Shown here: one piece after another, positions 4,827 to 10,800 of the stretch
How the letters are laid out: each line of letters starts with the position of its first letter
Numbering within the stretch: position 1 is the first letter of the stretch
NCBI GenBank assembly: GCA_020086605.1
Contig: JACBWW010000050.1
Location: 273,647-337,646, forward strand
DNA from: Lanius collurio
Taxonomy: Eukaryota; Chordata; Aves; Passeriformes; Laniidae
Length of the DNA: 64,000 bases
Reading direction: 5' to 3'
Program-made: the position numbers and the translations under genes
Notes under the pieces: generated by a model
Seen by the model: only the letters and a program-made list of their open reading frames with translations
The model's database searches: none
Told to the model about the DNA's origin: nothing

Positions 4827-7800
4827 GTAAGGGGGAGGAGGGGACGAGGGCGCCAGGGGAAGAGTAAGCCCGGGCATCATCCCAGGCTGGGGCTGACCTG
4901 CTGGAGAGCAGCTCTGTGGAGAAGAGCTGGGGGTCCTGGTGGACAACGAGCTGTCCATGAGCCAGGAGCATGCCCTGGGCACGCAGTGGTGTCCTCGGGT
5001 GTTTTAGGACGAACACTGTCAGTTCTTCCAGGGCTGATCCTGCCCCTGTCCTCAGGCCTAGTGGGGCACATCTGAAATGCTGTGTCCAGGTCTGGGCTCC
5101 TCAGGAAAAGTCAGGTGTGGAGCTCCAGAAGCAGGCTGTGGAGATGATGGAGGGACTTGAGCATTCTCACTCACAGGGTAAGGCTGCAGGAGGTTGGACT
5201 GTTCAGCTTAGAGAGGAGATGGCTGAGAGGGACCCTCATCCCTGTCTGTCCCTGTCTGCAGGGAGGGTTCAGAGGCTGGACCAGGCTCTGCTCCCTGAGA
5301 CCCAGCAATGGGACAAGAGACCATGGGCAGAAATAGATGCCCAGGAAGCTCCACCTGAACATGAGGAAGAACTTCTTTCCTGTGCAGTGACCAAGTACTG
5401 GAACAGAGACCAGAGAGGGCATGGAGTCTCCTTCACTGGGGATATTCCAGACCTATCTGGACACAGACCTGTGCCATATTCTCTTGGATGACCCTGCTTG
5501 AGCAGGGAGGTGGAACCTTGTGACCCATTATGGTCTCTTCCAACCTGCCCCTTTTTGTGCTTCTGGGCTGGCAGGCCTTCACACCAGCATTGCCAGGCCT
5601 TGCCTGGGTGAGTGCCAATAACCAGGCCTCAGGTGGTCCGGTGTGTAGGGAATGTCAGCAAATCCCCACTCTGCAGGTCCCCAGCCATGTTCACCAGGTC
5701 TAAATCAATGCGATTGTGTTGGGATGTCCTCAGCCAGGAGTCTGGCCCTGCACTGGTTCTTCACCCCTCAGGTGATGGTTTACTCACATCTGCTCAACAG
5801 TGCTTGGTAAACTTGATTTTCAGCATTCTCCAGTGAATATTGCAGGGGTTGCTCCATTGCAGTCTGTGTTAGAGGTACTATTGGTTTGTGAGAGGAGAGG
5901 CTGTGCTGCCAGAGGCAGCTGGAAGTGGATCAGGTTGCAGTGATCATGTCCCACCCCGTGCACCAGGGATAATAGAGTCATTTAGGTTGGAAAAATACTA
6001 GGAAGAAATTCTTCTCTGTGAGGGTGGTGAGGCACTGGCACAGGCTGCCCAGAGTGTGGATGCCCCATCCATGGAAGTGTCCAAGACCAGGTTGGACAGG
6101 GCTTGGAGCAACCTGGGATAGGTAGGAAGGTGTCCCTGCCCCTGGCAGGGGGTGGATGAGCCTAAAGTCCCTTCCAACTCAAGCCATTCTATGATTCTGT
6201 GAAAAGACCTTTATGATCAAGTGTTGCAACCGGGATAACTTGCAACAAGAGCTTTTCGGCAAGACGAGTAGGAAGGAAATAAGTGATATTTCTATAGATG
6301 TTGATGGATGTTTATTTCCCTCCAGCCCCATCAGGCTGAGATCCCATGGCCGACTCACCACACAATCACGAGACTCCCCCCTTCTTCCTGAGCCCAGGAA
6401 GCCCCCCAACAACCAATCAGAAGACAGGCACAGGCCACACGTGACATGGGGACAGGGACAGGGACAGACCTGTACACTGCAGGGTCCCACCCCTCGGGAC
6501 CTTGGGGAGAGGTACCTCAACAATTCACCCTTTCTTTTTAAATAAAATGAGCATTGGATATAGCTGGATAAACATAACAAAACAATTTCAGAAGAAGAGA
6601 AGCCACTATCTTGAGTCCCCAAATGTCCAAACAGATTTTCTCTGGAGCATTTTAGGTCTGGCAGAACCCTCTAATCATGCTTTGTGGGGAAACTGAGGCA
6701 GGAAAGGGTTTCTTCCATCTGTACCTGTTGGATTCTAAACAATGACAAATAATTTCTTCTCTCCTTCTTTTCATCCTCCCATTGGCATTGCAAAGGGGCT
6801 CATGGCAAACAGATGTGAGGGGAACCAGGGATGCAAATACTCATTGGGCATATACTGGGGACAAAAGGGCATGGAGTAAAAGGGGAAAGTGGGATAGGGG
6901 AAAGGATAGGGATTATGGGGATATTGTGTAGCATAACTACTACCTTTCACAGGAACACCCCCAGGGCCTGTAACACATGCTGCTTGAGGGCCCTTTCTTC
7001 CTTGTACAATTTTAAATTCTACTTGTTCTCCTAAGATTGGAACATGCTTTTTGGGGTTATTTTTTATGATACTAGATTTATGCACAAATATATCTTCCTT
7101 TGTATCATTCCTAACTATGAAACTGTAATTATTCTTTACGTTGTACCACTTCATAGTCCCCAAAACTTTATCATCTGTAGAAAATAAAAAGGTTGCGCGA
7201 GACACAGTCGGCTCGGGTGATTTCTACAGTTCAAGGCAGCTCCTGAAACATGCAGTTTATTTGCAAGGGTTGTGGGTGCAGGAGCTCTGCTTAAGCTGCC
7301 AGCCACATCTTAGAGCATGCCCCAGAGAGAGCGAGAGAGAGACTATGAGAGTAAGAGTAAGAGAGTAGGAGTCTAAGAGTCTAAGAGAGCTAAAAGTCTG
7401 GTTACATATTATATCTCTTGTTATACTGAATATGGTAATAGTACAACATCCAATCAATAGAAGACAGAAATCCTTAGAATTTACATACAACCTATCAAAA
7501 CTACTACATTACCATACTGTGTTACGTTTTAACTCCTAAAAACTACTTTCTAAAACTACTTTTTTCTTCCCTGCCATGGAGGCAGGGTTTCTCTGACTCT
7601 TGGACTTTTCTGTTTGTTGATGCATCCTCTTCTTTGCTAAAGACATTGTTCAATCAAGAGGGTTTCTCCTTCAGCTGGCCAGCCCATTGTTTTTGGTTGT
7701 ACAGTAACTAACAGCTCGGTATCTTATATCTCAAAGCTAGCTTTCATTTCTATTTTGCTTACAGGTTTCATATTTTCAGAATCTTTTGCCAAGCAGTCAT

Positions 7801-10800
7801 ATTTATAAGGTTTCCCTATTTCATCCTTCCCAACAATCTACGATGATTTTTCCGTCTTCTTGTGTTGCTGATGTTTGTTGCTTCGCTGTGTTTTTGCTTT
7901 CACTTTCAGTTTTGCTCGCTCTCACGCCGGGATTGCCTCTGTAGGGGTCTGAGCACTCCCACCGTGTGCTTCTGGCTTCCCAGGGCTGCCTTTGGGGATG
8001 CGTGGGCCTTGCCGTGCCGCGCCGCTTCTCTCTGCCAACTCCTCTGTTGCCCCTGGCAACAGCCTGCGCGCCGCCACCTCTGCCGGGCTCCCACGTGGCT
8101 GCCCAGGCTCGGCATGGCCCCGCGCCACACCATCCTGTTACCTGGGTTGCCCCGGTGGCCCCACGCGGCTTCCCCTCACCGGCGCCACCGCGCCGCTCGT
8201 GTGTCTCAGGGTGAACACCGCCAGACACAATCGCCACCGCGCCGCTCCTGACTCCTCTCCCGCCACCACCCCTCTCGCCGCCGGCCCCACTCCCGCCATG
8301 CCTGGCTTCACTCCCGCCATGCCTGGCCTCACTGGCTCTCCCACATGCGGGAGCTCCCTTGCCGCCGCCTGCAGTGCACTGGGCTGCCGCGGCTGGGGAC
8401 CGCGCGGTCTCCAGGGAACGGAGTAGCCCGCTGCAACGTGCGTGCTGCTCGACCACGTGTTTGCCACTAAAACAGCAGCGGGACACAGCCGACACTGCTT
8501 AACACTCTCTGTCATCAGGTAATATTCACAGAAATAGTCTTGCATCGGCACATTTTTTGATTCGGAAATTAATTGTGTCCAAACATTCTCCCAAAAGTCT
8601 TTGGTAAGAATCAAATCCCAAGAAACGTAGAAGTTTTTAAACAAACATGCTAGGAAGCATCTTAGTTCTTTTTGAGCTTGAATTAAGCTAAAATCTACAT
8701 ACTGCTGTTCAAGAACCTTTTTAAAGTAGATGTCTGTTTGTGGTTCAGACAGCCATGAGTCTTTCCATGAGTCCTCCATTGTTCAGAGATGGGACAGCAA
8801 AACAAATGCAAGAAGAGATATCCAGAATTTACCCATGAATCAACGAATCACATTCTCCAGGGATCGTTCGCCAGTTTTCTCCAACCATTTGTTATAATGG
8901 AGAATCCTTACAACAGGTATAAGACAGCGATGAACTTGGAAGGAAATATGAAGCAATATTTCTATAGATGTTGATGGATGTTTATTTCCCTCCAGCCCCA
9001 TCAGGCTGAGATCCCATGGCCGACTCACCACACAATCACGAGACTCCCCCCTTCTTCCTGAGCCCAGGAAGCCCCCCAACAACCAATCAGAAGACAGGCA
9101 CAGGCCACACGTGACATGGGGACAGGGACAGGGACAGACCTGTACACTGCAGGGTCCCTCCCCCGGGACCTTGGGGAAAAGTACCTCAAAAATCAAGTCC
9201 AAGCGATAACTCAACGCAGCCAAGCTCAGGGTTGGATTGTGAAATTTTCCAGACAACGAGCTTGGGATCCAGGTGGGAGATGTTGGTTTGAAAAGTGGCA
9301 GGCACTCTGGCAAATCATGTGTGCAAGAGCACATCTGCTGTGTATTCTCTTACCCCCAGGGCAGCGTTGTCCATTAATTGCTGGGTGGGTTAGGTGTGTC
9401 AACAGCCAGCATTGCTGCTGAACTGTAACAGCCAAAAAAAGAAGGTGAATTTTCTGATTAGTTGTCAATTCTAGAGCTTCTTTTGGTGTATAGTATTTTA
9501 GCCTTCACTTTGGTTTGTGGAGAAGCTTTTCTGTTTTGAATTCAGTTATTCAAGCTGTCATGACATGGAGGAAGGGTAATCATTTAGAACTGGAAGACAA
9601 GCCAACCAACAGAAAGTTGAAACCACCACTTATATCCTCATGTCATTAAATAAAGTAAAGAGAGCCCCACTTCGGCCATTCACAGCTTCTAATCAAGAGC
9701 AGCTGTTGAGCATAAAATTCAGCATCAATAACAGTGTAATTCAGGGGAAAAAAAGTTGTCAGGGCTTGGAGAGCTGGATCTTGTGAGAGCTCCCACCTGC
9801 ATTGGTGGGATGATGTTGACAGCACTGAGTCCTGTGCCAGGGGTCACCTGATGAGCTCATCGATGTGCCCCAGAAGCCTGGAGTGCCTCTCTGCCCTAAA
9901 ATGTTTCTTTGTGTTTGAAGCTTCATCATAGATATACCAAATAAGTGTATCTAATCTATCTGAGAGAGGCAGTTACTAAGGCTTCTTTATCTTCTTTTCT
10001 TTGTATGTTTGGAATTTTTTATGCAGGACTCCTGGAAAGCTAAGGTTTGATCTCAGCTTCTTTTTTAATAGGAATCGTTGTAATTCTCATTATCAAGCCA
10101 AAATTTACAGACCCATCTGTATTACTGCTATCCTTGGCTTTGCACATTCATATGTATATGGGTGTTCTTTGAAAAACAGTGTATTTCTAAAGTACTGGGA
10201 GCAGTGTACTGTGTCCTGGGCTTTGGAGAAATGTACACATTTCTTTGCTGAAAACAACTGCATTTTTGAAATACTATGGCATTGCAATGCTTTCACTTGT
10301 GTTCTGGGTTTGTTTGCGGGCTCTCAGAGCTTTGGGAATTTGCTTTGCCATGTTTTTCGAGTAGAGTACAGCCTCAAAGTAGAAGCTGCCTGGTAGACTT
10401 TGATATATTTGAGGGTTTTTTTTTTGGTCTGATTTTGCCCAGTTAGGTTTTTGGGTGAGATATTTGTAGTATAAAGCCTATCAGAAGCTTGTTCTGAGCA
10501 TGGTGGTGGTGGAGAAGTTGGTTTTAAGATGACCAACAGTGAAGCATTAAGCTCTCTGTGTGTTTGCTGTGTGACTCTAGGTTGCTGAGTTCATGGCAGG
10601 TGGAAGAGCTGTTGAGTACTGACAATGCCTTTTTAGCCTGAAATGCCCCAAATTGCTCTGCAGCATTGCTCTTCCCTACTTTTGTGAGGTCTTCAAACCA
10701 TCTTTGTTTGAGCAAGCTGCTGGGTGCTGCGTTTGGGTTCTGTGTGCCTCCAGACACTATGGTCTGTGGGACACTTGATTATTGACATCACTAAGAGAAA

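What the first reader, a model, noticed from the sequence alone, without database searches (positions are those of the whole stretch)
6222..9191. LTR element that appears to have captured a Y-box (YBX) cold-shock gene
Seen: a 2.97-kb element with matching LTRs, TGTTG/CAACA termini, exact 6-bp ATCAAG duplications and a polypurine tract. Its only recognisable protein domain is a Y-box-type cold-shock domain (KVLGTMKW, RNDTKEDIFVH, VTGPGGVPV), on the element's own coding strand and directly upstream of the polypurine tract. No replication enzymes are visible. Known: Y-box proteins bind mRNA and single-stranded nucleic acid, and some retroviruses acquire host genes. Inference: a non-autonomous element family that carries a diverged Y-box gene, perhaps to package, protect or translate its own RNA. 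I am not aware of a description of such an element.
Basis: partly seen in the sequence, partly recalled or inferred. Interest (0 to 1): 0.88.

Follow-up and report, generated by a model that had tools for sequence, protein, structure and literature searches.

The report
Retroelement carrying a cold-shock (Y-box) gene
A small, virus-like jumping element in what is probably a bird genome holds, between its two end repeats, a changed copy of the RNA-binding part of a cellular Y-box protein; if other copies carry the same piece, it would be an unusual case of a mobile element that took a host RNA-binding domain for its own use.

Summary
The element at 6222-9191 is real: direct LTRs, exact ATCAAG duplications, a purine tract and a Y-box-type cold-shock domain (CSD) on its own coding strand. 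It lies antisense in an intron of a laminin gene, probably LAMC1. Corrections: the LTRs match only in U3-R; their U5 parts share 43 of 59 aligned bases, so LTR divergence cannot date the copy. A second ORF (89 codons, no known relative) follows the leader. A 1.34-kb LTR-like insert separates it from the CSD, which has no ATG before the domain: this copy is broken. The CSD shares 53 of 82 residues with YB-1 and differs more conservatively than simulated neutral decay (0 of 855 stop-free runs as conservative), which argues against a recently landed processed retrocopy. No second copy could be examined (protein database off; genome search unreachable), so family status, donor and dN/dS stay open. 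Best reading: a non-autonomous ERV-type element with a captured CSD gene that binds element RNA (function inferred). New variant of a known kind.

The parts
6222..9191 (-). whole LTR element as it stands, insert included; element sense strand is minus
   Evidence: LTRs and ATCAAG on both sides
6216..6221 (.). target-site duplication, copy 1 (ATCAAG)
9192..9197 (.). target-site duplication, copy 2 (ATCAAG)
8890..9191 (-). 5' LTR, 302 bp, begins TT (3' LTR has TG), AATAAA at LTR position 206, ends AACA
6222..6522 (-). 3' LTR, 301 bp, TGTTG...CAACA, AATAAA at LTR position 207
8780..8889 (-). leader; begins AA-TGG, which is primer-binding-site-like, but the tRNA was not identified
   Evidence: sequence
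8513..8779 (-). N-terminal ORF, 89 codons from ATG to the insert, predicted helical at low confidence, no known relative
   Evidence: no Pfam or PDB sequence match up to E 10; model pLDDT 64.6; no fold match with E <= 0.001
7176..8511 (-). insert of about 1.34 kb, LTR-like towards its 3' end (TATA-like sites at 7425 and 7413, AATAAA at 7261, ends CTACA), 53% GC; lies between the N-terminal ORF and the CSD; exact ends uncertain by a few bases
6930..7178 (-). Y-box-type cold-shock domain
   Evidence: PF00313 9.7e-17; PDB Y-box chains; 53 of 82 residues identical to zebrafish YB-1
6771..6929 (-). C-terminal tail, 52 codons, rich in P, F and Y, then stop codon
   Evidence: stays open in 823 of 5000 shuffles, so its coding status alone is not significant
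6528..6539 (-). polypurine tract AAAAAGAAAGGG

Best explanation
A short non-autonomous LTR retroelement of endogenous-retrovirus type. Its internal region, apart from a 1.34-kb LTR-like insert, is about 1.03 kb and holds an N-terminal ORF of unknown origin followed by a captured Y-box cold-shock domain with a P/F/Y-rich tail. Shown: paired LTRs, target duplication, poly(A) signal, purine tract, the CSD on the element strand, its conservative divergence from YB-1, and no enzyme domain in the frames scanned. Inferred: the RNA is made from the LTR, packaged and reverse-transcribed by proteins of a helper ERV; the CSD protein binds the element RNA and protects it, helps its packaging, or acts as a nucleic-acid chaperone, as host YB-1 is reported to support several retroviruses. 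The present copy is interrupted by the insert and cannot make the protein in that form.
For: Boundaries, LTRs and duplication. CSD by Pfam and PDB sequence. The difference pattern is more conservative than neutral decay: BLOSUM62 total 296 against a median of 265 and a maximum of 295 in the 855 stop-free of 3000 simulated decays; the W, F, F and H contact residues are kept here, and were all kept in 11.4% of the 3000 runs (the residue roles are recalled). No poly(A) run follows the ORF. No in-frame ATG lies before the CSD in its open frame, which fits a domain that was the C-terminal part of a longer element protein. YB-1 is reported to stabilise HIV RNA, to support MLV and MMTV production in an RNA-dependent manner, and to come down with integrases of HIV, MLV and RSV, though that paper draws no firm conclusion on direct partners in cells (passages of PMC6040738).
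Against: Only one copy was seen. No relative of the CSD or of the N-terminal ORF was confirmed in viral contigs, nor of the CSD in prokaryote genome contigs, but these collections are not expected to hold bird ERVs. Whether the two ORFs were one frame is undecided, as two different 5-bp repeats could flank the insert. Whether the tail or the stretch before the CSD comes from a Y-box protein was not tested by alignment, because the PDB chains matched are little longer than the CSD (79-113 residues). The unusual LTR pair shows a recombined history. The neutral test cannot tell constraint inside the element from constraint in a host gene before capture, and a domain that was noticed because it is recognisable is a biased sample.
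Confidence: 0.6

Rival explanations
1. Deletion derivative of a full-length ERV: the CSD is a 3' accessory gene (near the usual place of env) of an autonomous virus, and this copy lost most of gag and all of pol.
For: The CSD lies near the 3' end, before the purine tract; the N-terminal ORF begins soon after the leader, the usual place of gag. Crocodilian ERVs are reported with KIT-ligand gained without loss of an ERV domain (abstract of PMC4299795) and with a nectin3-derived protein 'replacing' something viral (the passage shown was cut there).
Against: No gag, pol or env family in the frames scanned. A single copy cannot separate a stable short family from a one-off deletion.
Confidence: 0.22
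2. A processed or diverged YBX copy that landed in, or was recombined into, one old provirus: an accident with no role.
For: Only one copy seen; the locus shows other rearrangements.
Against: No poly(A) run after the ORF; CSD plus tail open in 0 of 5000 shuffles; differences more conservative than neutral decay (0 of 855 stop-free runs). That only the CSD of a Y-box protein is present is an impression from composition, not an alignment result.
Confidence: 0.15
3. Same anatomy as in the best explanation, but the captured domain is only a passenger, or served the host: it had no role in the life cycle of the element. (This overlaps the other readings; the numbers do not sum to one.)
For: No functional data; transduced genes need not serve replication (general knowledge).
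Against: The constraint signal in the CSD, unless it predates capture.
Confidence: 0.25

Closest known systems
Crocodilian ERVs with captured KIT-ligand (CrocERV29) and nectin3 (CrocERV31), PMC4299795 (abstract and passages seen)
   Same: Host coding sequence taken from an mRNA and carried inside an ERV; purifying selection reported there for the KIT-ligand ORFs
   Different: There the KIT-ligand ORF lies between pol and env of an ERV; here the captured domain binds nucleic acid and the element is very short, without recognised retroviral genes
Transducing retroviruses such as those with v-Src and v-sis (review PMC13297096, passages seen)
   Same: Host coding sequence carried between LTRs; often replication-defective (recalled)
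   Different: The captured domain here is a nucleic-acid-binding cold-shock domain, not a signalling oncogene
Y-box proteins YBX1/2/3
   Same: Cold-shock domain: 53 of 82 residues identical to zebrafish YB-1, contact aromatics kept
   Different: A two-residue gap in the CSD and a P/F/Y-rich tail, where YB-1 has basic and acidic repeats (passage of PMC6040738); the tail was compared by composition only
Short non-autonomous LTR elements (TRIM and similar; recalled)
   Same: Small internal region without enzymes
   Different: Here the internal region appears to code for a protein with a captured domain

Membership tests
LTR retroelement / endogenous retrovirus | two LTRs in direct orientation | tested here: met
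   U3-R nearly identical, U5 homologous but diverged
LTR retroelement / endogenous retrovirus | target-site duplication of 4-6 bp | tested here: met
   ATCAAG on both sides
LTR retroelement / endogenous retrovirus | TG...CA LTR termini | tested here: inconclusive
   3' LTR TGTTG...CAACA; 5' LTR begins TT
LTR retroelement / endogenous retrovirus | polypurine tract before the 3' LTR | tested here: met
   AAAAAGAAAGGG, 5 nt from the LTR
LTR retroelement / endogenous retrovirus | primer-binding site complementary to a tRNA | not tested
   AA-TGG follows the 5' LTR, but I matched it to no tRNA set in any call; no tRNA gene was found in the window
autonomous retrovirus | gag, pro-pol, env | tested here: not met
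   no such Pfam family in the frames scanned, and an internal region of about 1.03 kb besides the insert is too short for them; frames not scanned could hold decayed remnants
Y-box (YBX) protein family | Y-box-type cold-shock domain | tested here: met
Y-box (YBX) protein family | basic and acidic C-terminal repeats and A/P-rich N-terminus | tested here: inconclusive
   the tail is P/F/Y-rich by reading, and the insert precedes the CSD; no full-length Y-box protein was aligned (PDB chains are 79-113 residues)
host-gene-capturing ERV family | several copies at different sites sharing the LTR-gene junctions | not testable with these tools

The most novel reading that the evidence does not exclude
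A family of bird mini-retroelements whose only protein fuses a helical N-terminal domain to a captured Y-box cold-shock domain, which stands in for the retroviral nucleocapsid: it coats the element's own RNA and gets it into the particles of a helper ERV.
Probability: 0.25. Interest if true: 0.85.

Novelty: new variant of a known kind. Interest (0 to 1): 0.6.

Why it matters
The host-gene captures by retroviruses that I met in these searches or recall concern mostly signalling, ligand and surface proteins. Capture of a host mRNA-coating domain by a non-autonomous element would show a direct way to compete for RNA stability or packaging, and would make the role of YB-1 in retroviral RNA handling testable from an evolutionary experiment.

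Tried and rejected
Genome search with the CSD: unreachable seven times. Viral contigs: CSD (15 pattern matches, none confirmed), N-terminal ORF (1 pattern match, not confirmed) and three exact DNA words from the LTR, the insert and the region before the purine tract (0 matches each). Prokaryote genome contigs with the CSD: 30 pattern matches, none confirmed.

CSD model without an alignment: mean pLDDT 39.9, not used. A frame over the 3' LTR gave one weak Pfam match below its cut-off (PF06324, E 0.41), taken as chance.

Dating by LTR divergence: rejected. A K2P of 0.017 for U3-R is not an age, as differences cluster at both LTR ends; mis-cut the U5 and was redone.

Insert as a clean solo LTR: its left end has no TG, and two different 5-bp repeats could be the duplication. 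Its two ends are not significantly alike (80 of 1000 shuffles as good); its two halves, and the insert against the outer LTR, are weakly alike (32 and 14 of 1000 shuffles as good), which I did not pursue. Insert as an intron, because of an acceptor-like CTACAG at its 3' end: considered by eye, no good donor seen, not tested.

Donor paralogue: best bits for YB-1 and YBX2 chains are close (112.4 and 109), so not decided.
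Full report
OBSERVATION. The sequence at 6222-9191 is an LTR element on the minus strand. The 3' LTR is 6522..6222 (301 bp, TGTTG...CAACA), the 5' LTR 9191..8890 (302 bp), and ATCAAG stands at 6216-6221 and 9192-9197. Both LTRs carry AATAAA. A purine run, AAAAAGAAAGGG, stands 5 nt before the 3' LTR. In a BLASTN of 6101-9300 against the window (E up to 1e-3) nothing but the LTRs matched the element; four further matches are pieces of the flank just outside it, which I take for CR1 ends (recalled).

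SETTING. Exons of a laminin gene lie on the plus strand: 4223-4867 holds profile positions 1-90 of Laminin_N (PF00055) and 47641-47997 positions 89-193; laminin EGF domains follow at about 58-59 kb. Of nine stretches scanned in that call, five gave laminin domains and four nothing. The gene is probably LAMC1 (name by recall from the translations). Since the two N-domain pieces follow each other, the element lies antisense in the intron between them, probably the first.

THE COLD-SHOCK DOMAIN. The open frame 7223..6771 holds a CSD (PF00313, 9.7e-17 for 7178..6771). The 8 best of 43 PDB sequence matches are Y-box proteins; the next, bacterial cold-shock proteins, start at 3.1e-11. Against zebrafish YB-1, 53 of 82 aligned residues are identical, with one two-residue gap. 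I simulated neutral decay from that YB-1 stretch to the same identity, 3000 times, with random synonymous codons and transitions favoured. 28.5% of runs stayed free of stops (855 runs), and none of these was as conservative by BLOSUM62 as the real domain (296; maximum 295, median 265). The four contact residues W, F, F and H (roles recalled) were all kept in 11.4% of the 3000 runs; they are kept here. Such decay also expects frame-breaking indels: the chance of none is 0.0016 to 0.077 for one indel per 8 to 20 substitutions. Limits: a fish proxy for the ancestor, invented codons, no CpG effect, a domain noticed because it is recognisable, and no information on where the constraint acted. After the CSD comes a P/F/Y-rich tail of 52 codons; alone it is not distinguishable from a chance open frame (823 of 5000 shuffles). 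The PDB chains matched are CSD constructs of 79-113 residues, so they cannot show whether the tail is Y-box-derived.

THE REST OF THE ELEMENT. After the leader an ATG opens a frame of 89 codons (8779..8513), open in 5 of 5000 single-frame shuffles. It has no relative in Pfam or in PDB sequences; its single-sequence model is helical with pLDDT 64.6 and has no fold match with E of 0.001 or less. Between it and the CSD lies an insert of 1.34 kb with higher GC (53%, against 37% for leader plus N-terminal ORF and 41% for CSD plus tail), TATA-like sites and AATAAA towards its 3' end. It looks like an LTR at that end, but its left end lacks TG and two different 5-bp repeats could be its duplication. 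The CSD frame has no ATG between the stop inside the insert and the domain. So this copy does not make the CSD protein as it stands, and the domain was probably the C-terminal part of a longer protein.

THE ODD LTR PAIR. All 5 differences in U3-R fall in the first 34 of 237 columns; the other 203 are identical; then the U5 parts drop to 43 of 59 aligned bases with 12 gap columns, yet look homologous (score 12.0, best of 5000 mononucleotide shuffles 11.5). Five differences confined to 34 of 237 columns has a chance of about 6e-5 (my arithmetic, after the fact). The break to U5 lies about 25 nt after AATAAA, near the expected R/U5 border. Normal reverse transcription gives two equal LTRs (established knowledge). 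Possible causes: an older solo LTR at this site was refilled by recombination with a full element, so that outer LTR ends and target duplication are old and the inner part young; gene conversion between the two LTRs; or reverse transcription from two co-packaged RNAs with different U5. I favour the first, weakly. In any case LTR divergence cannot date this copy.

MECHANISM. Shown: anatomy, the CSD and its conservative change. Inferred: transcription from the LTR, packaging and copying by a helper ERV, and binding of the element RNA by the CSD protein. Host YB-1 is reported to support HIV RNA levels and particle production, and MLV and MMTV production in an RNA-dependent manner, and to come down with retroviral integrases (passages of PMC6040738; the work of Mu et al. 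cited there is not held).

KNOWN KINDS. The closest described cases that I met are crocodilian ERVs with KIT-ligand and nectin3 (abstract and passages of PMC4299795) and classic transducing retroviruses (passages of PMC13297096). Neither text holds 'Y-box' or 'cold shock'. I saw no paper on an ERV or LTR element with a Y-box or cold-shock domain among the titles and abstract starts listed by eight full-text searches: complete lists in four (18, 14, 17 and 12 papers) and only the top rows in four (20 of 91, 20 of 28, 15 of 698, 15 of 68). Two further searches served other questions. The library holds open-licence PMC papers only, so this is weak evidence of absence. In two bird papers, PMC6523648 had no 'Y-box' or 'cold' and PMC11009239 no 'YBX' or 'cold shock'.

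VERDICT. A real LTR element with a Y-box-type CSD inside it; a broken single copy; constraint likely; family, donor and function open.

Noticed in passing
6222-6522 and 8890-9191: The two LTRs are identical over 203 columns but differ at the U3 start and strongly in U5, with the U5 break about 25 nt after AATAAA: a recombined LTR pair inside an intact target duplication.
   Followed up: partly
7176-8511: Insert of 1.34 kb with an LTR-like 3' end and a GC-rich stretch (68% over 7880-8500); unclear whether it is a solo LTR or a remnant of a longer nested element.
   Followed up: partly
4223-59607 (+): Exons of a laminin-N and laminin-EGF gene, probably LAMC1; the element is antisense in an intron, probably the first.
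   Followed up: partly
12256-12738 (-): 160-aa open frame without a Pfam match at E 0.01.
   Followed up: no
6101-6212, 2988-3035, 20719-20755, 21475-21575, 50952-51045: Short related pieces of about 83-86% identity, probably CR1 3' ends (name recalled); the element sits just beside one of them.
   Followed up: no
30526-30569: Perfect (TG)22 run.
   Followed up: no
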